From a bacterium (lineage in GTDB: Bacteria; T1Sed10-126), in NCBI GenBank assembly GCA_003554945.1, contig PWHN01000026.1, forward strand, positions 1 to 7,676: a stretch of DNA of 7,676 nucleotides, in the 5' to 3' direction. The notes beneath the pieces were generated by a model, which ran no database searches, was not told where the DNA came from, and was given only the letters and a program-made list of their open reading frames with translations. Shown here piece after piece: positions 122 through 7,676 of this stretch. The position numbers and the translations under genes are program-made. How positions within the stretch are numbered: the first letter of the stretch is position 1; every line of letters begins with the position of its first letter.

Positions 122-171
122 GAAACCCTGGCGGGGTCAGGCTTAAAGTTTAAAGTTAAGGGGAGGAGAGG
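122..171 (+). repeat. Island-bracketing direct repeat, left copy
   Basis: These 50 bases match 7450-7499 at 48 of 50 positions in the same orientation. Both copies begin GAAACCCTGGCGGGGTCAG, continue with an A/T-rich TTAAAGTTTAAAGTTAAG and end in a purine run. Weaker similarity continues beyond it (a TGGAGTGATG-like stretch). The GGGTCAG plus TTAAAG layout resembles sequences often found beside REP-associated tyrosine transposases, but no such gene is present, so that link is only a guess. Confidence 0.7.
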
Positions 172-188
172 ATAGGAAGTGATGGAGC

Positions 189-440: not shown

Positions 441-701
441 TTAATCTAACGGCGGTATCTTTTCTACCTGTTCACCAGCTTGAGCTCGCTCCCACTGCAA
501 TTTTAATTGCTTTTTATGTATCTTAGCCCATTCAACAACCAAACCATGTGCTCTGGCCGGAAGGTCTCCGCGTAAGAGTGCCAACGAATCAAGTTCTATT
601 AGCGCCTTGTGTTCACCGTATTTTACATGAAAATGCGGAGGGAAATGGTCGTCATAGAAGATCCTGATAACAATCCCATAGAATCGACTTAACTCAGGCA
701 C
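441..701 (-). CDS. DUF4160 family protein, TA-like partner of DUF2442
   Basis: An 86-residue protein read from a GTG at 701. The first residues (PELSRFYGIVIRIFYDDH) and the following PPHFHVKYGEH segment at about residues 21-31 are the DUF4160 signature, with the clustered His-Pro-His residues typical of the family. Starting at GTG 701 gives the family's usual N-terminus and an 8-nt overlap with the DUF2442 gene upstream. A TTG at 728 would add nine atypical residues and lengthen the overlap to 35 nt. No strong ribosome binding site precedes either start, so it is probably translated by coupling to the upstream gene. DUF4160 and DUF2442 genes are often adjacent and are suspected to form toxin-antitoxin pairs, but no activity can be read from the sequence. 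Which partner is toxic is not decided here. Confidence 0.85.
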   Translation of the reverse strand: MPELSRFYGIVIRIFYDDHFPPHFHVKYGEHKALIELDSLALLRGDLPARAHGLVVEWAKIHKKQLKLQWERAQAGEQVEKIPPLD

Positions 702-978
702 TTTTTGTTTTGGTGACAGGGGAATCAAAAATTTCCACAGGAGATTTACCGGTAATTTTCAGATATAATGAATCAGCGCACATATCCACGTCATTAGGCC
801 AGGTGATATTTCCAGACTCAGTCACCCGGACGGCCTTAAAAATATCTTTATCGGTCCAATCCGCATAAACACCATGCCCAACCTTATCCGATAAATCAAG
901 CACACCTTCAGACCCGTCGACAAATCTCAATTTTAGCCTGTAATTAGACTCTGGTTGGACTTCTTCTACCTGAGGCAA
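694..978 (-). CDS. DUF2442 family protein, TA-like partner of DUF4160
   Basis: A 94-residue protein. The beta-rich N-terminal half (YRLKLRFVDGSEGVLDLSD, residues about 13-31) and the C-terminal GNITWPNDVDMCADSLY segment (about 56-72) are characteristic of DUF2442, a small family of unknown biochemical role that frequently sits next to DUF4160. The start is a TTG at 978, chosen because a clear AGGAG lies 9 nt upstream and because it yields a normal family length. It is the first gene of the pair. A promoter with -10 at 1023-1028 lies just upstream, its -10 bracketed by a 7-bp inverted repeat that could be an autoregulatory site. Family assignment is confident; the role as regulator or antitoxin is inferred from gene order and context. 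Confidence 0.85.
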   Translation of the reverse strand: MPQVEEVQPESNYRLKLRFVDGSEGVLDLSDKVGHGVYADWTDKDIFKAVRVTESGNITWPNDVDMCADSLYLKITGKSPVEIFDSPVTKTKSA

Positions 979-1014
979 GATTTTTCACTCCTGATTTTAT
1001 TCGTCTGCTAACCT

Positions 1015-1039
1015 TCAAAGTTACTATAGCACACTTTGA
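1015..1039. promoter_or_regulatory. Operator-like inverted repeat at DUF2442 promoter
   Basis: TCAAAGT (1015-1021) and ACTTTGA (1033-1039) form perfect 7-bp arms around an 11-nt spacer that contains the -10 element of the minus-strand promoter. Such placement is typical of autorepressor sites in TA operons. Binding by either product is not shown. Confidence 0.4.
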
Positions 1040-1052
1040 GCAAAATTTCTAA
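1023..1052 (-). promoter_or_regulatory. Promoter of DUF2442-DUF4160 pair
   Basis: On the minus strand, TTAGAA (1047-1052), an 18-bp spacer and TATAGT (1023-1028) form a sigma70/sigmaA-like promoter. The predicted start near 1016 leaves a leader of about 38 nt before the TTG at 978. Confidence 0.5.
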
Positions 1053-1090
1053 CTTCCTTTTGCTATGGCTAATGAAAATCCGGTCGACCG

Positions 1091-1236
1091 CGGGGCGAAA
1101 CATCGGACTTGCGAGCATGCGAAGAGGCGAGCAGGCGAATTACCGTAAACAGCGATAGAACTCGAACAGGCGAGCAAGAGAAAAAACAATCAAAGGTCAG
1201 GGAACACCGGTCGCTGGTCAAAAGTCGAGGGTCAAA
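1091..1236 (+). repeat. Octamer/heptamer composite repeat block 2
   Basis: It begins CGGGGCGAAACATCGGACTT, then runs through GCGAGCAT, GCGAAGAG and GCGAGCAG-type octamers, a linker ending CAATCAAAGGTC, a GTCAGGGAACACCG unit and heptamers (GTCGCTG, GTCAAAA, GTCGAGG). The order matches block 1. It separates the DUF2442/DUF4160 and hicBA cassettes. Confidence 0.6.
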
Positions 1237-1267
1237 TTCCTTACTAAAGTATCACATCTTTTGGAGA

Positions 1268-1513
1268 TCAAGAGTTGTTTTTTATCCAGATACAAAATTT
1301 ATAGAAATCTTGAGCTCCTGCTTGATCGGCTATACTTTTAAGAGTCCCGGTTTTTAGACTATCGTGGAGAGGAATTGTAACTGTTCTAACCTCATTTGTT
1401 TCAGGATGGTGATATTTTAAAATTGCGTGACTTCCCTTCTGCCGAACAAGCTGAAAATTATGTTTTACCAGTGCGTTTAAAACTTCTTGGCCAGAAAGAT
1501 CCGGCCGACTCAT
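1268..1513 (-). CDS. hicA: HicA family toxin (mRNA interferase)
   Basis: An 81-residue protein of the HicA (YcfA) family, small dsRBD-fold ribonucleases that cleave mRNA and are neutralised by HicB. The key segment KGSHAILKY (residues 26-34) contains the Gly-Ser-His motif with the presumed catalytic His29. It is followed by VTIPLHDSLKTGTLKSIADQAG (45-66), the family's usual strand and C-terminal helix. The last 15 residues (AQDFYKFCIWIKNNS) are more divergent than is common. The ATG at 1513 overlaps the hicB stop in a 4-nt ATGA and has no ribosome binding site of its own, so it depends on coupling. The order here is hicB then hicA, the reverse of the arrangement that named the family. Both active-site and structural elements look intact. 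Confidence 0.93.
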   Translation of the reverse strand: MSRPDLSGQEVLNALVKHNFQLVRQKGSHAILKYHHPETNEVRTVTIPLHDSLKTGTLKSIADQAGAQDFYKFCIWIKNNS

Positions 1514-1713
1514 TTAAACCATGGAGCATCCGGTGTGGACGCGCTATTTTCTTGCTGTTGAGTTTCCCGGGTTAGCTCGACGGCCTCATCAAGATTTTCA
1601 AGCGCTTCCTGCCTTGTTTCTCCCTGGCTTGCAATACCGGATTCAGGATCACGGGCAACCCACATATCATCTTCATAGGTCAATTGAATTTTTTCGGGAA
1701 TCGCAGTTTCCAT
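1510..1713 (-). CDS. hicB: HicB family antitoxin, short form
   Basis: A 67-residue protein with the partial RNase H-like HicB fold: IQLTYEDDMWVARDPESGIASQGETRQEALENLDEAVEL, spanning residues 9-47, where W18, the D22-P-E turn and the G31-E-T-R-xEA helix entry are typical. The C-terminal tail is acidic and disordered-looking (QQQENSASTPDAPW). No DNA-binding (HTH or RHH) domain is fused, unlike longer HicB proteins, so autoregulation by this protein alone is uncertain. The start is the ATG at 1713, preceded by a GGTGAT ribosome binding site; the two GTG codons further up (1725, 1722) fall at or before the likely transcription start. It pairs with the overlapping hicA. Confidence 0.9.
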   Translation of the reverse strand: METAIPEKIQLTYEDDMWVARDPESGIASQGETRQEALENLDEAVELTRETQQQENSASTPDAPWFK

Positions 1714-1730
1714 GATTATCACCACTCTAT

Positions 1731-1736
1731 ATTATA
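1731..1736 (-). promoter_or_regulatory. -10 element of hicBA promoter
   Basis: A perfect TATAAT on the minus strand lies 17 nt upstream of the hicB ATG, predicting a very short leader. No good -35 is seen at 16-18 bp, so the promoter may need an activator or be weak. Confidence 0.45.
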
Positions 1737-1815
1737 CTTAACTTTCTGTTTATAGTATCGGACGTAAAAGAGAAAATAGCAAGAAAAAACAAGATCTGGA
1801 CAAGACGGGGCGTTG

Positions 1816-2008
1816 GTCGAGAGTCTATATAAACCCAGGTCAACGGTCAAAGGTCAAGGGTCGTTAGTCAATAGTCGAAGGTCTATATAAACCAAGTCGA
1901 TGGTCAAAGGTCAAAGGTCGGGGAATATCGGTCAATAGTCGAAAGTCGAGGGTCAAGTGTCGACAAATCAAAATCGGGGAACATCGGTCGGGAGTCGAGG
2001 GTTGACGG
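1816..2008 (+). repeat. Heptamer repeat array 1
   Basis: About 190 bases of degenerate 7-bp units in which GTC keeps its phase and the next four bases vary (for example GTCAACG, GTCAAAG, GTCAAGG, GTCAATA, GTCGAAG). Consensus is about GTCRAWR. Longer inserts recur, notably GTCTATATAAACC (twice here) and the 14-nt GTCGGGGAATATCG. Reading frames through it are spurious. It fills most of the gap between hicB and the first vapC. Confidence 0.75.
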
Positions 2009-2027
2009 CAAACTATAGGGGATGATT

Positions 2028-2438
2028 TTACTTTGCTGGTCGGAGTATTTCCGCCGGGGTTTTAGAATTGATAGGCGCAGCTTCAAAATCAGAATCATAA
2101 GTTAAAATCGTCAAACTTGATTTTTTAGCCGTTTTATACTGATAAGCATCATCAAAATCCAAATTGTATTCCTCGGCTATATTTGACAGCTCCAGGAGTC
2201 CATCTTCGGGAAGATTTATTACAATCAGGGGGCCTGTCAAAATCATATCACGACAAAATCTGTCAAAACCTTCCTGATCGTCTTCATGAAATAAAATAAC
2301 CCCTATGGAATGAAGGGCAAAATCAGTGATATAAAATTCGGAATCGCCAAATTCACGGAAAAACTCTTTTACTTCTTCTTCACGCTGCTGGCCCAGTAAA
2401 ACTTCAAGAATAATGTTGGTGTCAACTAAAAATTTCAC
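2028..2438 (-). CDS. vapC: VapC-like PIN-domain toxin
   Basis: A 136-residue PIN-domain protein, expected to be a Mg2+-dependent ribonuclease held inactive by the upstream antitoxin. The first acidic residue is D6 in KFLVDTNIILEVLLG. The central and distal acidic residues are in LDFDDAYQYKTA (D94, D96, D97) and LTYDSDFE (D115, D117), matching the PIN active-site layout. The usual Glu near residue 45 is not obvious in the FALHSIGVILF segment, which looks like a subfamily variant. Start chosen at GTG 2438: it gives the classic N-terminus and a 4-nt GTGA overlap with the antitoxin stop. A GTG at 2456 would add six residues and has a weaker upstream signal. Heptamer repeats begin 20 bp beyond its stop. 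Confidence 0.9.
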   Translation of the reverse strand: MKFLVDTNIILEVLLGQQREEEVKEFFREFGDSEFYITDFALHSIGVILFHEDDQEGFDRFCRDMILTGPLIVINLPEDGLLELSNIAEEYNLDFDDAYQYKTAKKSSLTILTYDSDFEAAPINSKTPAEILRPAK

Positions 2439-2668
2439 TCGTATCCACTTCTCCACCTGGTCGCCTGGTCTTCTAACTCAACTCCAGTATACTTCTCCCC
2501 TAAATGTTCAAGCCGGCCCGCCCAGTCAAAAGTTGGAGCACCGGTACATTTTTGCTCACGACGCTGCCTCAAATACTTCGCAAAATCCACTACTTTCTTC
2601 CGATCTTCCGGCGGTAATTTCTTTAATTCACGTTGAATCCCCTTTAAATCTTCAGTTGAAGTTGACAT
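2435..2668 (-). CDS. DUF2281-type antitoxin, partner of VapC
   Basis: A 77-residue protein. Residues 8-40 (LKGIQRELKKLPPEDRKKVVDFAKYLRQRREQK) form the short helical dimerisation/DNA-contact unit found in DUF2281-like antitoxins. The C-terminal half, with FDWAGRLEHLGEKYTGVELEDQATRWR (47-73), resembles the tail such proteins use to bind and block a PIN toxin; the WAG and W-R residues are the recognisable anchors. The ATG at 2668 has GAGG 8-9 nt upstream. It is the first gene of the pair and ends in the GTGA overlap that starts vapC. Its promoter at 2708-2737 is one of the best in the window, consistent with an abundant, autorepressing antitoxin. The exact family name is less certain than the pairing. 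Confidence 0.8.
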   Translation of the reverse strand: MSTSTEDLKGIQRELKKLPPEDRKKVVDFAKYLRQRREQKCTGAPTFDWAGRLEHLGEKYTGVELEDQATRWRSGYE

Positions 2669-2707
2669 CTTATCGCCTCACTTTACTTTGAAGTTCCTTG
2701 TATCTTA

Positions 2708-2737
2708 AGTATAACACAAATAAATCGTCATTATCAA
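2708..2737 (-). promoter_or_regulatory. Promoter of antitoxin-vapC pair
   Basis: On the minus strand, TTGATA (2732-2737), an 18-bp spacer and TATACT (2708-2713). The predicted start near 2701 gives a leader of about 33 nt carrying the GAGG ribosome binding site. Confidence 0.65.
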
Positions 2738-2780
2738 AATTTGCAATTACGCACGAAAAAACTGCAATCAATATTTGAAG

Positions 2781-2918
2781 GTCGAGGGTCTATATAAAAC
2801 AGGTCAAGGGTCGATGGTCGAAAGTCAAAAGTCAAGGAACACCAGTCGATAGTCAATGGTCAAAGGTCGATAGTCGACAGTCTACAGTCAAAAGTCGACG
2901 GTCAAAGAGCAAAGTCAA
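2781..2918 (+). repeat. Heptamer repeat array 2
   Basis: About 140 bases of GTC-phased heptamers, including GTCGATA, GTCAATG, GTCAAAG, GTCGACA, GTCTACA and GTCGACG, with one GTCTATATAAAACAG insert and one 14-nt GTCAAGGAACACCA unit. Same orientation and consensus as the array at 1816-2008. Confidence 0.75.
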
Positions 2919-2977
2919 AACCTTCTGGATTTTGGTGTAGCGCGGGGCGCGGTCATGGCAAGAGAAGTTGAATTTTC

Positions 2978-3095
2978 CCGTGGGACGGAGGTGTCGATTG
3001 TCGTTTCTTTGCTTTGAGTGTTGGATGCGTTGGATGCTTCGGGCCTATCCAAACGAATAATTATAACCCATGGTAGGATAGAATTGAATGATTTA
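2978..3095 (+). repeat. Degenerate, rearranged copy of dispersed repeat
   Basis: Positions 2978-3008 (CCGTGGGACGGAGG followed by TGTCGATTGTCGTTTCT) are identical over 31 bases to 4051-4081. Positions 3056-3095 carry a decayed form of the AATAATTATA...GAATTGAATGATTT segment of the repeat copies at 4081-4240 and 6491-6650. The middle part is different. This 2669-3184 gap has no gene other than promoter and repeats. Confidence 0.6.
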
Positions 3096-3113
3096 GTAAA
3101 GCGCAGGGCGTGG

Positions 3114-3182
3114 GAAGCTCGAGCAGGCAAGCTTGCGATCCTGCGAACAGGCGAAAAACGGTAAAACAAATTCAAAGTCAAA
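3114..3182 (+). repeat. Octamer repeat block 3
   Basis: GAAGCTCGAGCAGGCAAGC followed by degenerate GCGAACAG octamers and the GCGAAAAACGG...TTCAAAGTC linker. It ends directly at the stop codon of the 52-residue gene at 3185-3343, acting as that operon's 3' flank. Confidence 0.5.
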
Positions 3183-3184
3183 AA

Positions 3185-3343
3185 TCAACTTGCAAGCTTC
3201 TCCTTTTTCCGAAGCAGCTCCTGTGATTCTTTAGATTTTTCCTTGATAAATTTTACCTGTTCATCAGCAGACAAATTTTTCATTTCTTCAGACATTTTTT
3301 CACGAATCGGCCGTAGCCAGTTAAAAACTTTTTTATTCTTCAA
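3185..3343 (-). CDS. Small 52-residue protein, likely antitoxin of PIN toxin
   Basis: A short gene that simple ORF calling misses because it starts with TTG. The product begins MKNKKVFNWLRPIREKMSEE, then MKNLSADEQVKFIKEKSKES, and ends in a Lys-rich tail QELLRKKEKLAS. It is helical, highly charged and lacks Cys. The TTG at 3343 lies inside the end of the upstream PIN gene (11-nt overlap) and has a strong GGGAGG 9 nt upstream, good evidence that it is translated. From memory, PIN toxins of this subtype are often followed by a 50-60 residue protein with a similar (R/K)-x-IR-(D/E)-K(L/M)-xEE...(P/A)xE(Q/E)xxFI pattern. Its position and size fit an antitoxin placed after its toxin. Antitoxin function is inferred and no characterised homologue is recognised. 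Confidence 0.75.
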   Translation of the reverse strand: MKNKKVFNWLRPIREKMSEEMKNLSADEQVKFIKEKSKESQELLRKKEKLAS

Positions 3344-3797
3344 CTTCAACAACCTCCCGGGGCGAGTAAATATCCAATTTCTTGTAGCCTTCTTCTAAAT
3401 TCACAGCATTAAACCTGCGAATCTTATCAAATTTTACAATATGCTTGAAATTCCAGCTTACAACCAGATCAACTTCTGAAATCGTCGCTAAAGAGATGTG
3501 CAACAAATCCTCAAAAAAATTTTCATCCAATATCTCCCGATTCAGATATGCTGTTGCCAGTGAACTCGCTTCGGTGGTTATTTCAACAAATTCAGCTCCC
3601 GCCGTCTCAATCTGCTTATATTTTTCTATAACCTGTTCCGGTGCTTCCTGTATTTCGGCGAGTATTAATTCTGAAAGCACAGGAGTATATTCACCGCGTT
3701 CAAAAGAAGTGACTAACTCTTGTGACCAGGACGCAAATTCAGAATCAAAACATCCACCAATTACTGAAGTGTCCACATAAATTCTTAAAGATCTCAT
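3333..3797 (-). CDS. PIN-domain toxin, second subtype
   Basis: A 154-residue PIN-domain protein of a different subfamily from the VapC at 2028-2438. The N-terminus RIYVDTSVIGGCFD places D9 in the first active-site position. E43 and E48 lie in SELILAEIQEAPE. The ENFFEDLLHISLATISEVDLVVSWNFKHIV block (92-121) supplies E96/D97, D110 and the SWNFKH motif typical of this group. Ribonuclease activity is expected from the family. The ATG at 3797 is preferred over a GTG at 3803 because AGGGTG sits 5 nt upstream of it. The gene comes first in its operon, with the 52-residue gene overlapping its end, so the order is toxin then presumed antitoxin. A promoter is visible at 3847-3875. Confidence 0.88.
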   Translation of the reverse strand: MRSLRIYVDTSVIGGCFDSEFASWSQELVTSFERGEYTPVLSELILAEIQEAPEQVIEKYKQIETAGAEFVEITTEASSLATAYLNREILDENFFEDLLHISLATISEVDLVVSWNFKHIVKFDKIRRFNAVNLEEGYKKLDIYSPREVVEVEE

Positions 3798-3846
3798 TGC
3801 CACACCCTAATTTCATTCCAGAATAAATAGCTCTTCCTCACTTATT

Positions 3847-3875
3847 AAAATAACACAAACCAACCCCAATAGCAA
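3847..3875 (-). promoter_or_regulatory. Promoter of PIN toxin-small protein pair
   Basis: On the minus strand, TTGCTA (3870-3875), a 17-bp spacer and TATTTT (3847-3852), leading to a leader of about 43 nt before the ATG at 3797. Confidence 0.5.
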
Positions 3876-4047
3876 ATATGCACGCAACATTTTACGTGAA
3901 ACAGAGATTTTTTAAATAATTTCAAGAACTTTTTTTGCATTTCCTGGTATATTTCAGTAATATATTAATCGGCTGGATGGTGAATTTTAGGACGTCTTTT
4001 GACGGCCCAATAATTAATTCATCAACTGACCTTTTTTCCTCAATCGC

Positions 4048-4064
4048 CCTCCGTGGGACGGAGG
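4048..4064. repeat. Short perfect stem-loop in dispersed repeat
   Basis: CCTCCGT pairs with ACGGAGG around a GGG loop. It opens the 31-base segment shared with 2978-3008. No T-tract follows, so it is not called a terminator. Confidence 0.45.
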
Positions 4065-4080
4065 TGTCGATTGTCGTTTC

Positions 4081-4240
4081 TCTGCGCGCCTCGGAGGTTG
4101 AAAGTTTGAAAGTCTGGGAAATCTTACGCTTATATTTTCGAATAATGGAAAATAATTATATCTGATGGAGTGAGGAAATTGAATGATTTTTTAGAAGAAC
4201 GTGATGAGGAGAGCGGGGAACAGCTCGAGCAGGCGAGCAT
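4081..4240 (+). repeat. Dispersed 160-bp repeat, copy 1
   Basis: Aligns without gaps to 6491-6650, about 17 differences in 160 bases (near 89% identity). In one plus-strand frame it reads EVESLKVWEILRLYFR, then a TGA, then GTGAGG starting VRKLNDFL. Most differences before the TGA are synonymous between copies (GTC/GTT, ATC/ATT, TTA/CTG, CGA/CGG). It may be a fossil gene junction rather than a functional gene, because downstream the frame dissolves into octamer repeats. The wider gap 3798-4274 contains a promoter, A/T-rich DNA and this repeat, but no gene I can support. Confidence 0.65.
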
Positions 4241-4260
4241 GCGAGCAGGCGAAAATCAGG
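4222..4260 (+). repeat. Octamer repeat block 4
   Basis: CAGCTCGAGCAGGCGAGCAT followed by GCGAGCAG and GCGAAAATC. It forms the tail of dispersed repeat copy 1, just beyond the 3' end of the 70-residue gene at 4275. Confidence 0.5.
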
Positions 4261-4274
4261 CAGCGGAGGCAGGG

Positions 4275-4487
4275 TTAGGATACTTTGCGCATTTCGTAGA
4301 TCTCCCCGTATTGAGCAGCGTCCTTGAGGTCCCCTTCTTCCAGAGCCTTACGGACTTTATCTAACTTCTGGGCTTCCTCTACCTCAAGATAGGGGGACCA
4401 ACCAGTCTCATCTTCAACCAATTCAACCTCCACTCTGGCTACATATCCCCCGGCGTGAATGTGTTTTGTCTTGGTCGTTTTTTTCAT
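4275..4487 (-). CDS. 70-residue protein, likely antitoxin of DUF4258 protein
   Basis: The product starts MKKTTKTKHIHAGGYVARVE and continues VELVEDETGWSPYLEVEEAQ, then KLDKVRKALEEGDLKDAAQY and GEIYEMRKVS. The first half looks like beta strands around a conserved-looking GWSPYL core; the second half is helical (KLDxVRKALxxGDLKxA). I recall similar uncharacterised proteins encoded after DUF4258 genes, which suggests a dedicated antitoxin family, but no named domain is recognised. The ATG at 4487 is chosen over an upstream start at 4520 because GGAGG stands 8 nt before it and because ATGA overlaps the DUF4258 stop by 4 nt. Codon usage resembles the neighbours. Confidence 0.78.
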   Translation of the reverse strand: MKKTTKTKHIHAGGYVARVEVELVEDETGWSPYLEVEEAQKLDKVRKALEEGDLKDAAQYGEIYEMRKVS

Positions 4488-4810
4488 AGGCTTTTCCTCC
4501 GAGTAAAATTTTCGTTCCACAAATCAGGATCTGGGCGATAAGCAGTTACTAAAACTGCCGGCTCTTCGTGACCTTTCGGAATCCCCCATACTGTATGAAC
4601 AATACTTCCTTCCGAATCCTTTTGTAAAAATAACGCACACGGTCCTTTGGGATAATCTGGGTATTCTTCAAGGATTTTTGCTTCCGATAGTCCTTCCAGA
4701 ATCTCATTCACAGTCAAATTGTCTTCCGCCAACTCATCATATCCATGTTCTGATATTTGAACTTGATCATTTTGAAAGTTTTGTTGTATTTTATCCAAAA
4801 AATCAGCCAT
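4484..4810 (-). CDS. DUF4258 protein, BrnT/RelE-like putative toxin
   Basis: A 108-residue protein. The order of elements matches DUF4258: a helix with ISEHGYDELAEDNLTVNEI (19-37), the AKILEEYPDYPKGPCALFLQ strand pair (44-63), VHTVWGI (71-77), and the C-terminal VLVTAYRPDPDLWNENFTRRK (86-106). The last motif is the strongest family mark. DUF4258 is grouped with small RelE/BrnT-fold putative toxins; catalytic residues are not well defined, so ribonuclease activity is only presumed. ATG at 4810 with AAGGTG about 10 nt upstream. It is more divergent than the second DUF4258 gene at 5361-5675: the N-terminal helix has lost the usual HAxxRMxERG pattern (here EHGYDELAED). Confidence 0.83.
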   Translation of the reverse strand: MADFLDKIQQNFQNDQVQISEHGYDELAEDNLTVNEILEGLSEAKILEEYPDYPKGPCALFLQKDSEGSIVHTVWGIPKGHEEPAVLVTAYRPDPDLWNENFTRRKSL

Positions 4811-4870
4811 ATATTTTAAACACCTTATGAACTAAGACATGTCACCTCTTAAACCGTATCTCTATTGTTT

Positions 4871-4900
4871 AGTTTAACCTATTTGTGAGAGATTTTCCAA
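4871..4900 (-). promoter_or_regulatory. Promoter of first DUF4258 pair
   Basis: On the minus strand, TTGGAA (4895-4900), an 18-bp spacer and TAAACT (4871-4876). A moderate match, with a leader of about 54 nt before the ATG at 4810. Confidence 0.4.
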
Positions 4901-4929
4901 TTTCTTGATTATTTGAGACTGGAAACGAA

Positions 4930-5004
4930 GCGTAAACATCGAACCTGCGAACAGGCGAGCTGACGAAAAAACCAGTCAAAGATCGATCCTGGCGAAAGTC
5001 GGGA
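4930..5004 (+). repeat. Octamer/heptamer composite repeat block 5
   Basis: GCGTAAACATCGAACCT, octamers GCGAACAG and GCGAGCTG, the GAAAAAACCAGTCAAAGATC linker, then GTC-phased words. A 10-bp direct repeat GGAAACGAAG brackets it (4921-4930 and 5012-5021). The remainder of the 4811-5127 gap shows nothing recognisable apart from the promoter at 4871-4900. Confidence 0.5.
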
Positions 5005-5127
5005 TCAGATGGAAACGAAGGGATGAAAAGATATAGTAGTTCGAAATAGTATTCAATGAAAAGCTAAGAACCGTCAAAAATTCGCAGTTGTCAGGTTGTT
5101 AGAAGCGGTACGGGGATTATGAAAAAT

Positions 5128-5361
5128 TTAACTGGCCACCTTATCGTAGGGGACCATTTCGATTTCCGTGTGCTTTTCTTTTGCCTTGTTTGTGACTTCT
5201 TCAAGTCTACTGGCTGTGTCATCATCTAACCATTCTTCCCCACACTGTTCACAAATAATAGCCGGGACATTTCGGACAACTACTACCCCTTCCCCGAAAT
5301 CAACCGTAAAAGTTGTCTTCCCGTCAGCTTTGCGACCGCCACACAGGGGACATTTATCCAT
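5128..5361 (-). CDS. YgiT/MqsA-type zinc-finger antitoxin
   Basis: A 77-residue protein with two CxxC pairs, C4-P-L-C7 near the start and C37-E-Q-C40 after a strand-rich stretch. This is the zinc-binding N-domain layout of MqsA/YgiT antitoxins. The segment VVVVRNVPAIICEQCGEEWLDDDT is typical of the family. It ends after a helical, charged tail (RLEEVTNKAKEKHTEIEMVP) and lacks the C-terminal HTH domain of full-length MqsA, so DNA-binding autoregulation is not evident. Start set at ATG 5361, one base overlapping the DUF4258 stop (TGATG). A GTG at 5364 (GTGA overlap, GGAG 6 nt upstream) is an equally possible start adding one Met. The order toxin then antitoxin is the same as in mqsRA. Confidence 0.9.
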   Translation of the reverse strand: MDKCPLCGGRKADGKTTFTVDFGEGVVVVRNVPAIICEQCGEEWLDDDTASRLEEVTNKAKEKHTEIEMVPYDKVAS

Positions 5362-5675
5362 CACTCATCTCTCCTCGTCTTAAAATTATCAGCAAAAATT
5401 TGGGGATCCGGCTCATACACAGTAATAACAAATACTTTCTGGTATTCTTCTCTAAAAGCTATCACAACATGTAAAGGTCTATCTGCAGCTTTTCCAAGTA
5501 TTAATGAACTGGGATAAGGCTGATCATCCGGATAATCTTCAATTATTTCACCAGATTTTAACACTTCCCGAACTTCAGCCCTTGATATACCACGTTCTAA
5601 CATACGGCCTAATGCATGTTTCTTCCATTCTATAATACCATTCTCGAGCGAATCACGAACCTTTTTCAAATTCAT
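5361..5675 (-). CDS. DUF4258 protein, putative toxin paired with YgiT
   Basis: A 104-residue DUF4258 protein with canonical features: WKKHALGRMLERGISRAEVREVL (17-39), GEIIEDYPDDQPYPSSLILG (42-61), RPLHVVIAF (66-74) and VFVITVYEPDPQIFADNFKTRR (81-102). These match the RelE/BrnT-like putative toxins commonly followed by a YgiT-type antitoxin. ATG at 5675 with AAGGAT 8 nt upstream. No convincing promoter was found: the expected -35 zone is occupied by a fragment of the dispersed repeat at 5708-5729. It is a paralogue of the gene at 4484-4810 but has a completely different partner. Confidence 0.9.
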   Translation of the reverse strand: MNLKKVRDSLENGIIEWKKHALGRMLERGISRAEVREVLKSGEIIEDYPDDQPYPSSLILGKAADRPLHVVIAFREEYQKVFVITVYEPDPQIFADNFKTRRDE

Positions 5676-5707
5676 AGGCTAAATCCTTCGCTATAGTATC
5701 CACACTC

Positions 5708-5806
5708 CGCGCCTCGGAGGTTGAAAGTTCCGTTAGTGTTATCCCCTCGTACTTTGAATTATTTACTTACTGCTCATATGGTACGGAGGTGGCGTTTGTC
5801 GTTTCT
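5708..5806 (+). repeat. Scrambled fragments of dispersed repeat
   Basis: CGCGCCTCGGAGGTTGAAAG (within 5708-5729) matches the start of repeat copies 1 and 2. GTACGGAGGTGGCGTTTGTC plus GTTTCT (5781-5806) is a diverged copy of the 31-base segment at 4051-4081 and 2978-3008. In copy 1 the order of these two pieces is reversed, so modules have been shuffled. Confidence 0.55.
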
Positions 5807-5848
5807 TTTCTGTCTAATCTCATAGTAATGTAAAAACTTCCAGATAAT

Positions 5849-6181
5849 TCACGGTAAAGTCAGCAATCCGGTTTCTTTATCCTGAAGGAAAGCTTTAATC
5901 TCAGCCTTGTCCTGGCGAAGCAGGTTCTCTATCGCCGAAGTTGTACAGTTGCCAAGCAAAAGCCATATGACCTTTGGTGGGTGACCATGAAGGAAAATTT
6001 TCTGATGAAAATCAGAATCTTTGGATACTATTGTGTAATTATTTTTACTGGCGGATTCCCAAATTTCACTGTCATACGCTTCTGCCAGCCCAAGATTTCG
6101 AACGTGTTCAATTTCAAACGAAGTGTCGGCCAGCCTATCTATCAAACGATAAGATAGGTTCTGATCAAGTAACAGTTTCAA
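5849..6181 (-). CDS. DUF5615 PIN-like toxin
   Basis: A 110-residue protein of the DUF5615 (PIN-like, Mut7-C-related) family. Diagnostic parts are KLLLDQNLSYRLIDRL (2-17) with D6, GLAEAYDSEIWESASKNNYT (31-50) with D37, IVSKDSDF (51-58) with D55 and D57, and HPPKVIWLLLGNCTT (67-81). These acidic residues correspond to a PIN-type metal site, so RNase activity is expected but unproven. It starts with TTG at 6181 in a 4-nt TTGA overlap with the DUF433 stop and has no separate ribosome binding site, pointing to low, coupled expression. DUF433-DUF5615 pairs are a recognised TA-type combination (VapBC45-like). Confidence 0.92.
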   Translation of the reverse strand: MKLLLDQNLSYRLIDRLADTSFEIEHVRNLGLAEAYDSEIWESASKNNYTIVSKDSDFHQKIFLHGHPPKVIWLLLGNCTTSAIENLLRQDKAEIKAFLQDKETGLLTLP

Positions 6182-6402
6182 GAGGCTCGGGATTTTAATT
6201 TTCTTTCCCTGTTGGCAGCGAAGGCCAGACAGGCCCGGATATCTTCCTCAGTAAGTTCGGGAAAGTCTTCTATGATTTCTTCTTTGGACATACCTCCCGC
6301 CAGGTAATCCAGGATATCATCAACAGTTATCCTTAAATCTCGAACACAGGGTTTGCCGCTGCGTCTTTGAGGATCAACAGTAATAATTTTTTCATAGTCC
6401 AC
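6178..6402 (-). CDS. DUF433 antitoxin
   Basis: A 74-residue DUF433 protein. It shows the family pattern ITVDPQRRSGKPCVRDLRIT (7-26), then VDDILDYLAGGMSKEEIIEDFPELTEEDIRACLAFAA (27-63), a helix-turn-helix-like unit expected to bind the operator and the DUF5615 toxin. The usual RGTRIT is RDLRIT here, a minor variation. GTG at 6402 is preferred because GGAGG stands 7 nt upstream; the TTG one codon earlier (6405) is too close to it. First gene of its operon, directly downstream of the promoter at 6424-6451. Confidence 0.92.
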   Translation of the reverse strand: MDYEKIITVDPQRRSGKPCVRDLRITVDDILDYLAGGMSKEEIIEDFPELTEEDIRACLAFAANRERKLKSRAS

Positions 6403-6423
6403 CAAAATCCCTCCTTTTCTTTA

Positions 6424-6451
6424 AGTATACGATATCCGAGAGAAAGAACAA
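6424..6451 (-). promoter_or_regulatory. Promoter of DUF433-DUF5615 pair
   Basis: On the minus strand, TTGTTC (6446-6451), a 16-bp spacer and TATACT (6424-6429). The likely start near 6417 leaves a very short leader that begins almost at the AGGAGGG ribosome binding site. Confidence 0.6.
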
Positions 6452-6490
6452 CATAATATTTTTTACAAGCAAAGCCTCGGGATTGAAAGC

Positions 6491-6650
6491 TCTGCGCGCC
6501 TCGGAGGTTGAAAGTTTGAAAGTTTGGGAAATTCTGCGCTTATATTTTCGGAAAATGCTAAATAATTATATCTGATGGAGTGAGGAAATTGAATGATTTT
6601 TTAGCAGAGGAAAATTAGGAGAGCGGGGAACAGCTCGAGCCGGCGAGCTT
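6491..6650 (+). repeat. Dispersed 160-bp repeat, copy 2
   Basis: Gap-free counterpart of 4081-4240. The matching frame reads EVESLKVWEILRLYFR, then KMLNNYI and TGA, then VRKLNDFLAEEN and TAG, so the downstream frame is closed by a stop that copy 1 lacks. The gap 6406-6886 holds this repeat, the octamer array and two divergent promoters, but no gene I can support. Confidence 0.65.
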
Positions 6651-6812
6651 GCGAACATGCGAACAGGTGAAAGTTCACGATGGGGCGAGCGGGCGAAAGA
6701 GCGTAAACATCGAGCCGGCGAACAGGCGAACAGGCGAAAAAAGCAATCAAAAGACGAAAAACATCGGGCAGGCGAAGATGCGAGCAAGCGAAAACCAGGC
6801 AAAGGTCGGGGG
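6630..6812 (+). repeat. Octamer repeat array, longest copy
   Basis: About 180 bases of degenerate octamers, for example GCGAACAT, GCGAACAG, GCGAGCCG and GCGAGCAA, with inserts containing GTAAACATCG and AAAACATCG, ending in CAGGCAAAGGTCGGGG. All six frames are low-complexity here (minus-strand frames read SPAR/ACSPAR-like words), so the apparent ORFs of 60-100 codons are repeat artefacts. Confidence 0.75.
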
Positions 6813-6836
6813 GCAACGGTTGGGGATTTTTTATTT

Positions 6837-6865
6837 TTGACCGGAGGGTGATATTGTGATATACT
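6837..6865 (+). promoter_or_regulatory. Promoter of AbrB-RelE pair
   Basis: TTGACC (6837-6842), a 17-bp spacer and TATACT (6860-6865): the closest match to consensus in the window. The spacer contains a tandem GTGATATT/GTGATATA. The transcription start would fall near 6872. Confidence 0.75.
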
Positions 6866-6877
6866 CTTACCAGTAAG
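6866..6877. promoter_or_regulatory. Operator-like palindrome before AbrB-type gene
   Basis: CTTAC-CA-GTAAG lies immediately after the -10 and covers the predicted transcription start, just before the AAGGAGG ribosome binding site (6881-6887). AbrB/MazE antitoxins usually repress their own promoters at such symmetric sites. Confidence 0.4.
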
Positions 6878-6895
6878 AAAAAGGAGGTGTTGGTG

Positions 6896-7129
6896 TTGAG
6901 CACTGTTAAAACTACTCGTTTATCTACTAAAGGTCAGGTTGTCATCCCGGCAGATATTCGTAAAGAGCTTGATATGAATGAAACCGATGAACTTATCGTT
7001 ACAAGAGTTGATGATCGGATCATAATGCGCAAGTTGCATATCGGGGATATTTTAGAAGAAGCGCAGCAGGCTTCTGAAAAAGACCGGACGGTATCTCATG
7101 AAGAAATGAAAAAAAAGTATGGGATCTGA
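6896..7129 (+). CDS. AbrB/MazE-type antitoxin
   Basis: A 77-residue SpoVT/AbrB-domain protein. The swapped-hairpin DNA-binding domain is clear: TTRLSTKGQVVIPADIRKEL (6-25), a DELIVTRVDDRIIMRK strand pair (31-46), then a helical C-terminal arm (IGDILEEAQQASEKDRTVSHEEMKKKYG) that would wrap the RelE toxin. Several in-frame start codons lie together (GTG 6887, TTG 6890, GTG 6893, TTG 6896). TTG 6896 is chosen because it lies 8 nt after AAGGAGG and gives the usual MSTVKTT N-terminus; GTG 6893 is the main alternative. The only pair on the plus strand. It overlaps the toxin gene by 11 nt. Confidence 0.93.
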   Translation: MSTVKTTRLSTKGQVVIPADIRKELDMNETDELIVTRVDDRIIMRKLHIGDILEEAQQASEKDRTVSHEEMKKKYGI

Positions 7130-7424
7130 CTGGTCTATAGAATATGGTCCTTACATAACCCGTCAGTTCAAACAGCTTAACAAATCTGTTGTGCAAACAG
7201 TTTTAAAAAGGGTTGAGCGCCTGCTTAAAAATCCTACCCTGGGAAAACCTATCAAAGGCAAAGCATCCGATTATAATTTGCGAGCTTTAAGAATTACCAC
7301 CGGCCAGGGAGAATTCAGGTTGATATACCAGTTATGGGAGAAAGAGGGGAAGATTTTAGTGATTTTTATAGGCAGCCGTAAGGATGTTTATGAACGGCTT
7401 GAACGATGGCTGGAGGGGGATTGA
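7119..7424 (+). CDS. RelE/ParE family toxin
   Basis: A 101-residue RelE/ParE-superfamily protein: WSIEYGPYITRQFKQLNKSV (5-24), helix VLKRVERLLKNPTLGKPIKG (28-47), LRALRITTGQGEFRLIYQLW (54-73) and ILVIFIGSRKDVYERL (79-94). The LR..R....FRLIY and GSRKDVY elements are the family core. Arg55, Arg58, Arg67 and Arg87 are candidate RNA-contact or catalytic residues. RelE members cleave mRNA on the ribosome while ParE members poison gyrase, and this sequence alone does not decide, though the SRKDVYERL ending is common in RelE-type proteins. The ATG at 7119 lies within the antitoxin end, with no strong ribosome binding site, so translation is probably coupled. Confidence 0.93.
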   Translation: MGSDWSIEYGPYITRQFKQLNKSVVQTVLKRVERLLKNPTLGKPIKGKASDYNLRALRITTGQGEFRLIYQLWEKEGKILVIFIGSRKDVYERLERWLEGD

Positions 7425-7449: not shown

Positions 7450-7499
7450 GAAACCCTGGCGGGGTCAGACTTAAAGTTTAAAGTTAAGGGGGGGAGAGG
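7450..7499 (+). repeat. Island-bracketing direct repeat, right copy
   Basis: Same orientation and 48 of 50 bases identical to 122-171. The differences are a G/A near the middle and an A/G in the purine run. The segment between the two copies contains all eight gene pairs. Confidence 0.7.
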
Positions 7500-7562
7500 T
7501 TATGGAGTGATGAGGCCGATTCGATGCAGCTATTAACCATTATCGAGAGGAAGATCTAACCT

Positions 7563-7590
7563 GATTAATTCATCAGCTGATGAATTAATC
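7563..7590. repeat. Perfect 28-bp palindrome
   Basis: GATTAATTCATCAG is followed directly by its exact complement CTGATGAATTAATC, with no spacer. No T-tract follows. A diverged left arm (TTAATTCATCAACTGA) occurs near 4014-4029. It could be a cruciform-forming site, a protein-binding site or a recombination end; nothing in the window decides. Confidence 0.7.
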
Positions 7591-7600
7591 ACCCGTAGGG

Positions 7601-7624
7601 CCGCCCATTCGTAGGAATGGGCGG
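7601..7624. repeat. GC-rich hairpin
   Basis: CCGCCCATTC and GAATGGGCGG form a 10-bp perfect stem around GTAG. It follows the 28-bp palindrome by 10 bp. The next bases are GGTTAGCCC, not a T-run, so a Rho-independent terminator is not supported; a dispersed palindromic element is more likely. Confidence 0.6.
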
Positions 7625-7676
7625 GGTTAGCCCAGCTGTTTACATAAAAACTGGAAAATTACATTATGTAGAAATA

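What the first reader, a model, noticed from the sequence alone, without database searches (positions are those of the whole stretch)
441..7424. Eight different toxin-antitoxin type pairs packed as an array
Sixteen small genes form eight pairs from at least eight distinct family combinations, nothing else is encoded, and nearly every pair has its own promoter and a 1-11 nt internal overlap. Family knowledge supports TA roles for HicBA, VapBC, DUF433-DUF5615, DUF4258-YgiT and AbrB-RelE. The other three are inferred from matching architecture. Seven in a row share one strand, as in a cassette array, but without integron features. This suggests a TA island that grows by cassette capture.
Basis: partly seen in the sequence, partly recalled or inferred. 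Interest (0 to 1): 0.75.

Follow-up and report, generated by a model that had tools for sequence, protein, structure and literature searches.

The report
Island of eight toxin-antitoxin pairs
A short stretch of a little-known bacterium's genome holds eight different two-gene toxin-antitoxin units in a row and nothing else recognisable; such "TA islands" have been known since 2009, and this is a compact example set among the bacterium's own ordinary repeats rather than a new capture system.

Summary
Sixteen small genes form eight overlapping pairs, and no other gene is recognisable. The window is a whole 7.7-kb contig of a 2.2-Mb draft genome, so the island's true ends are unknown. Six pairs belong to named TA families: dhiAT (DUF2442/DUF4160), HicBA, DUF2281-PIN, DUF433-DUF5615, DUF4258-YgiT and AbrB-RelE/ParE. 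Two pairs had an unnamed partner, and relatives support both. PIN2 is followed by a small partner ORF in about 30 genomes. DUF4258a is followed by the a9 family in four other genomes. PIN2 is predicted as a VapC fold and DUF4258a as a weaker MqsR/BrnT/RelE-like fold.

The "cassette capture" reading is not supported. The genome shows no full-length integron integrase, and a crude scan found no attC-like site. The repeats between pairs are genome-wide families that also flank ordinary genes. Eight of nine spacers match other contigs; none of the modules does. Module DNA is 41.5% GC against about 49-50% in most sampled contigs. The most likely reading is stepwise horizontal accretion in repeat-rich DNA. 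TA islands of mixed classes, and multi-pair "cassettes", were described by Makarova et al. 2009. Toxicity is untested for every pair.

The parts
441..728 (-). DUF4160 toxin (DhiT family); likely start GTG at 701, overlapping DUF2442 by 8 nt
   Evidence: Pfam PF13711 3.4e-19; NCBIfam toxin_DhiT 7e-24, 84 bits against cut-off 100
694..978 (-). DUF2442 antitoxin (DhiA-like), first gene of the pair
   Evidence: Pfam PF10387 4.9e-13; NCBIfam antoxin_DhiA 1.7e-4, far below cut-off
1268..1513 (-). HicA toxin
   Evidence: PF07927 7.1e-17; the only HicA in this genome
1510..1725 (-). HicB-type antitoxin (DUF7387)
   Evidence: PF24113 2.6e-15; 4-nt overlap with hicA
2028..2456 (-). PIN-domain toxin (VapC-like); likely start GTG at 2438
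   Evidence: PF01850 2.2e-13
2435..2668 (-). DUF2281 antitoxin
   Evidence: PF10047 4.2e-9; a VapC/DUF2281 pair was shown to be a TA system elsewhere (PMC12654330)
3185..3352 (-). a7: small partner (antitoxin candidate), downstream of PIN2; likely start TTG at 3343
   Evidence: No Pfam or NCBIfam hit; a small ORF of this type follows PIN2 homologs in about 30 loci
3333..3803 (-). PIN2: VapC-like toxin, first gene of a toxin-first pair
   Evidence: 33 related loci; E50, D99, SWNFKHIV invariant in the 23-sequence alignment; model pLDDT 93.6, VapC folds Z up to 12.9
4275..4520 (-). a9: small antitoxin candidate; real start ATG at 4487, 4-nt overlap with DUF4258a
   Evidence: Homologs in 8 other genomes; directly downstream of DUF4258 in L115-L118; alignment
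4484..4810 (-). DUF4258a toxin candidate, MqsR/BrnT/RelE-like fold
   Evidence: PF14076 2e-16; model pLDDT 69; best rows MqsR-MqsA entry Z 8.7 and BrnT Z 7.9
5128..5364 (-). YgiT/MqsA-type zinc-finger antitoxin
   Evidence: NCBIfam YgiT_finger 5.9e-16
5361..5675 (-). DUF4258b toxin
   Evidence: PF14076 2e-27; weak BrnT 0.015
5849..6181 (-). DUF5615 PIN-like toxin
   Evidence: PF18480 1.9e-35, PF18478 PIN_10 5.8e-6
6178..6405 (-). DUF433 antitoxin
   Evidence: PF04255 1.4e-25
6887..7129 (+). AbrB/MazE-fold antitoxin
   Evidence: PF04014 1.5e-9, TIGR01439 6.1e-12
7119..7424 (+). RelE/ParE-family toxin
   Evidence: PF05016 2.2e-8, PF15781 1.2e-7, TIGR02385 5.8e-4
4080..4253 (+). spacer repeat, 89% identical to 6490-6663; the long unit is seen only in this contig, short pieces occur elsewhere
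6490..6663 (+). second copy of the 174-nt spacer repeat
122..184 (+). 63-nt direct repeat, 92% identical to 7450-7512; the two copies lie at either end of the array and no other full copy was found in the genome
7450..7512 (+). second copy of the 63-nt end repeat
2978..3012 (+). REP-type repeat (also 4051-4085; weaker at 5776-5810); the same 27-29-nt core lies on both sides of a RAYT gene on contig C103
7549..7676 (+). multi-copy element at which this and several other contigs end; the assembly breaks here

Best explanation
This is a toxin-antitoxin island: eight independent type II TA operons, mostly nucleases of the VapC/PIN, HicA and RelE/BrnT/MqsR kinds, that built up side by side in repeat-rich, non-essential DNA of one bacterium. 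Each pair is probably transcribed on its own and controlled by its own antitoxin (inferred). The toxin is held inactive until the labile antitoxin is lost, under stress, phage attack or loss of the locus (known for type II systems, inferred here). Several unrelated pairs together would make the locus hard to delete and could give several separate growth-arrest or anti-phage responses (inferred). The pairs most likely arrived one or a few at a time by horizontal transfer and entered by ordinary recombination at repeat-rich intergenic sites, not through a dedicated integrase (inferred).
For: Families of all pairs. The two unnamed pairs recur in unrelated genomes: a small ORF follows nearly every PIN2 homolog, and a9 follows DUF4258a in four other genomes. 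Predicted folds: PIN2 like VapC, Z 12.9; DUF4258a nearest the MqsR-MqsA entry, BrnT and RelE, Z 8.7 to 5.9. PIN2 keeps conserved acidic residues. Foreign make-up: modules 41.5% GC, contig 42.4%, most sampled contigs 0.48-0.51; HicA and DUF4258 occur only here in this genome and not in its one relative. Native setting: 8 of 9 spacers match 7-18 other contigs, while none of the 8 modules matches any. Smaller TA groups on other contigs. TA islands of mixed classes are documented (PMC2701414 Table 5).
Against: No toxicity, rescue or expression data for any pair. Low GC may partly reflect small AT-rich genes rather than foreign origin. Insertion of modules between existing repeats cannot be told from later spread of repeats into an older array. 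The spacer 1726-2027 matches nothing else in the sample. The contig ends hide the surroundings, and plasmid or prophage location is not excluded. The DUF4258a model rests on two sequences (pLDDT 69).
Confidence: 0.8

Rival explanations
1. A non-integron cassette array: the pairs are captured and exchanged as units by recombination between the repeats in the spacers (RAYT/REP, long local direct repeats or the octamer repeats).
For: 174-nt spacer repeat (89%) on both sides of a three-pair block and a 63-nt repeat (92%) near both ends of the array, both confined to this contig as full units. REP-type repeats in three spacers, with the same core around a RAYT gene on C103.
Against: Short spacer repeats are genome-wide and sit beside ordinary genes. 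C4 has no more long repeat matches than other sampled contigs, and similar local direct repeats occur on other contigs. The two copies of the 174-nt repeat are not next to the same genes. No strain pair to show turnover.
Confidence: 0.15
2. Part of a chromosomal integron whose integrase lies on another contig.
For: Seven pairs share one strand; TA genes are common in superintegrons. A tyrosine recombinase cut by the end of contig C46 scores equally with the integron-integrase and XerA models.
Against: No attC-like site (crude). The other three recombinases score better with Xer models and far under the integron cut-off. Spacers share no common site between all pairs.
Confidence: 0.03
3. The block came in one transfer as a ready-made multi-pair island, for example on a plasmid or prophage, and is kept by addiction.
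For: Makarova et al. propose transfer of multi-pair TA cassettes. All modules have similar low GC (0.38-0.43).
Against: Spacers are made of the host's own repeats, which suggests residence or stepwise growth in this genome. No plasmid or phage gene on the contig. No genome with the same order was found among those searched.
Confidence: 0.2
4. The contig is mis-binned DNA from another organism.
For: Low GC and lower tetranucleotide correlation (0.826) than most contigs.
Against: It shares many repeat families with other contigs of this genome, including near-identical copies of the 3' element.
Confidence: 0.03

Closest known systems
TAS 'islands' (Makarova, Wolf and Koonin 2009, PMC2701414, Table 5)
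   Same: Significant excess of closely spaced TA pairs of different classes that tandem duplication cannot explain; horizontal transfer of multi-pair cassettes already proposed
   Different: Those are statistical excesses in whole genomes; here eight pairs lie one after another with no other recognisable gene, in a lineage with one held relative at family level
Superintegron TA cassettes (Vibrio and others)
   Same: Many TA modules in a row, mostly on one strand
   Different: No full-length integron integrase and no attC-like site found; spacers are long and made of genome-wide repeats
dhiTA of Dickeya dadantii (DUF4160/DUF2442, PMC8198452)
   Same: Same domain pair with a short overlap
   Different: Gene order reversed (antitoxin first here); NCBIfam scores below the curated cut-offs
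MqsRA and BrnTA
   Same: DUF4258b is paired with a YgiT/MqsA-type zinc finger; the DUF4258a model is nearest the MqsR-MqsA entry and BrnT
   Different: Separate Pfam family (DUF4258); the antitoxin is only 78 aa; DUF4258a is paired instead with the a9 family

Membership tests
TA island (Makarova 2009 sense) | Significant excess of closely spaced TA pairs | tested here: met
   Eight pairs in 7.7 kb of a 2.2-Mb genome; Poisson P about 1e-15 to 2e-11 for assumed totals of 15-50 pairs
TA island (Makarova 2009 sense) | Pairs belong to different classes, not tandem duplicates | tested here: met
   Eight distinct family combinations; the two DUF4258 proteins are only 27% identical
Type II toxin-antitoxin module | Two small overlapping co-directed genes with a conserved partner | tested here: met
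   Overlaps in all eight; recurring partner shown here for PIN2/a7 and DUF4258a/a9; the others rest on named families
Type II toxin-antitoxin module | Toxin inhibits growth and its antitoxin rescues | not testable with these tools
   Needs expression tests
Integron | Integron integrase gene | tested here: inconclusive
   Four tyrosine recombinases; one each scores best as XerD and XerC, a third best as XerA/XerC, none near the integron cut-off; one is cut by a contig end; draft 93.5% complete
Integron | attC sites between cassettes | tested here: not met
   Pattern and arm-complementarity scan found none on either strand; the scan is crude and shuffles also gave none
MqsR/BrnT/RelE fold (for DUF4258a) | Fold match to this toxin superfamily | tested here: met
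   MqsR-MqsA entry 3hi2 Z 8.7 (rmsd 2.9, 85 aligned), BrnT 3u97 Z 7.9 (2.5, 75); unrelated rows start at about Z 5.7; model pLDDT 69; Foldseek E only 0.026
VapC/PIN fold (for PIN2) | PIN fold with conserved acidic residues | tested here: met
   Z 12.9, rmsd 2.3, 127 aligned; E50 and D99 invariant, D the majority residue at position 11
RAYT/REP system (spacer repeats) | RAYT transposase gene flanked by the same repeat | tested here: met
   C103 5773-6738 matches Y1_Tnp 2.5e-10 and REP_Tyr_transpos 1.8e-10 (below that model's cut-off), with repeat copies on both sides

The most novel reading that the evidence does not exclude
The island grows and shrinks module by module through recombination at locus-specific and REP-type repeats, giving a capture-and-exchange array of TA pairs that needs no integron.
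Probability: 0.12. Interest if true: 0.6.

Novelty: new member of a known kind. Interest (0 to 1): 0.33.

Why it matters
It is a compact, clean example of a TA island with eight unrelated pairs and no other recognisable gene, in a lineage with few sequenced relatives. It ties two unnamed small proteins (a7 and a9) to conserved toxin partners, so they can be tested as antitoxins. It also shows foreign-looking TA modules set in the host's own repeats, which bears on how such islands form. It does not show a new mechanism.

Tried and rejected
Integron reading: recombinase search, NCBIfam scoring and attC pattern scan gave nothing convincing. Spacer repeats as TA-specific cassette sites: rejected because the octamer and REP repeats lie beside ordinary genes and C4 is not enriched. 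Known anti-phage systems: a PADLOC scan of ten of the sixteen proteins gave only one weak match, to a CARF-RelE model. Plasmid relatives of DUF4258a: none. Solved-structure sequence search for DUF4258a and b, PIN2, DUF4160: no useful hit. RNA families: none. One stray 40-aa sequence sent along has no meaning and is not used.
Full report
What is there. The window is the whole of contig C4 of a 2.2-Mb, 121-contig draft genome. Sixteen small genes make eight overlapping pairs. Seven pairs lie on the - strand (441-6405) and one on the + strand (6887-7424). Families by profile: DUF2442/DUF4160 (DhiA/DhiT-like); HicB-type DUF7387/HicA; DUF2281/PIN; PIN2/a7 (a7 has no profile hit); DUF4258a/a9 (a9 has no profile hit above cut-off); DUF4258b/YgiT finger; DUF433/DUF5615; AbrB/RelE-ParE. 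Five pairs have the antitoxin first; three (PIN2/a7, DUF4258a/a9, DUF4258b/YgiT) have the toxin first. Genes called at the first start codon overlap by 4-37 nt. About 64% of the span is coding. No Rfam family matches.

More than chance. With an assumed 15-50 TA pairs in the genome, eight in one 7.7-kb stretch has Poisson P of about 1e-15 to 2e-11. The totals are assumptions. Family searches found six other PIN hits, one other ParE, six other AbrB/MazE, one other DUF5615 above the cut-off, and no other DUF4258 or HicA.

The two unnamed pairs. A scan of 84,980 species with PIN2 gave 33 relatives in 33 genomes from bacteria and archaea. In nearly all 32 loci examined a small ORF of about 50-80 aa follows the PIN gene, overlapping it or within about 30 nt, and most share a segment like IHEIREKxYEETKxMSxEE, which a7 matches. 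Two of these downstream ORFs (in L070 and L074) match a7 directly by tblastn. E50, D99 and SWNFKHIV are invariant in the 23-sequence alignment. AlphaFold2 gives a confident PIN fold (pLDDT 93.6) whose best solved matches are VapC toxins, Z up to 12.9. For a9, 8 other genomes of 386 searched have a homolog. In four of them (L115-L118; broken by a stop in L117) it directly follows a DUF4258 gene about 50-58% identical to DUF4258a; a fifth (L114) keeps a DUF4258 fragment. The alignment shows a9 starts at ATG 4487, a 4-nt overlap. A modest model of DUF4258a (pLDDT 69, two sequences) is nearest to the MqsR-MqsA complex entry (Z 8.7), BrnT (7.9) and RelE-type toxins, which fits the pairing of DUF4258b with a YgiT/MqsA-type finger. 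Foldseek E-values are weak.

What is known of the families. DUF4160/DUF2442 (dhiTA) was shown to inhibit growth and to be autoregulated in Dickeya and E. coli (PMC8198452). A VapC/DUF2281 pair was shown to be a TA system in E. coli (PMC12654330). DUF433 with PIN was predicted as TA (PMC2701414) and one such locus was studied in Synechocystis (PMC3834315, abstract). DUF4258 is listed as a predicted toxin in Synechocystis (PMC4963859).

Spacers and repeats. Spacers carry octamer (GCGAGCAG-type) and heptamer (GTCGAGG-type) repeats, a REP-type repeat, and other short repeats. The octamers occur on many contigs beside ordinary genes. The REP-type repeat lies on both sides of a RAYT gene on C103. 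In about 400 kb of sampled genome C4 is not enriched in long repeat matches. Eight of nine spacers match other contigs (7-18 contigs each); none of the eight modules does. Two longer direct repeats are confined to C4 as full units: 174 nt (4080/6490, 89%) and 63 nt (122/7450, 92%), but similar local direct repeats occur on other contigs. The sample was chosen mostly for its repeats, so the repeat density is biased upward.

Origin. Modules are 41.5% GC and spacers 43.7%. Most sampled contigs are 0.48-0.51; three other contigs with TA genes, C120, C94 and C110, are also low (0.41-0.45), but C13 and C14, which carry TA pairs too, are not. The only held relative (same family, other genus) has no DNA match to the window, no a9, no DUF4258 and no HicA. 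This points to horizontal acquisition; it does not show how.

Not an integron. Of four tyrosine recombinases, three score best with Xer models and far below the integron cut-off; one cut by a contig end is undecided. A crude attC scan found none, with none expected.

Comparison. Makarova et al. 2009 tested TA spacing in complete genomes, listed those with TA islands, noted that the pairs are mostly of different classes, and named preferential insertion and transfer of multi-pair cassettes as explanations. The present locus fits that description and is notable for compactness. In an unrelated genome (L113) fragments of DUF2442 and DUF4160 lie beside an a9 homolog, so similar company recurs elsewhere.

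Verdict. Observation confirmed; TA-island reading supported; cassette capture not shown. New member of a known kind.

Noticed in passing
L121 (contig C103) 5773-6738: A RAYT (REP-associated tyrosine transposase, Y1) gene with a C-terminal helix-turn-helix-like stretch, flanked on both sides by the 27-29-nt repeat that also occurs in the window's spacers.
   Followed up: partly
window 7549-7676: Multi-copy element with a 30-nt palindrome (7562-7591) and a GCCCATTC-GTAG-GAATGGGC hairpin; near-identical copies lie at or near the ends of seven other contigs, so the assembly breaks there.
   Followed up: partly
L037 (contig C120) 6365-8334; L039 (contig C94) 2655-5030; L028 (contig C13) 15173-16873: Smaller groups of TA pairs on other contigs, with octamer repeats between or beside the pairs; C120 and C94 are also low in GC.
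   Followed up: partly
L113 (genome G034): Fragments of DUF2442 and DUF4160 beside an a9 homolog and a VapB-like small ORF: looks like a decayed TA cluster in an unrelated genome.
   Followed up: no
window 1726-2027: The only spacer with no match in the sampled genome; made of GTC-type heptamer repeats shared with 2735-2915.
   Followed up: no
L130 (contig C46), right end: Tyrosine recombinase cut by the contig end whose N-terminal half scores equally with integron-integrase and XerA models.
   Followed up: no
window 5849-6181: DUF5615 protein has a phmmer match (1.1e-6) to the giant-virus protein Crov588 (6nyr) over 61 residues; meaning unclear.
   Followed up: no
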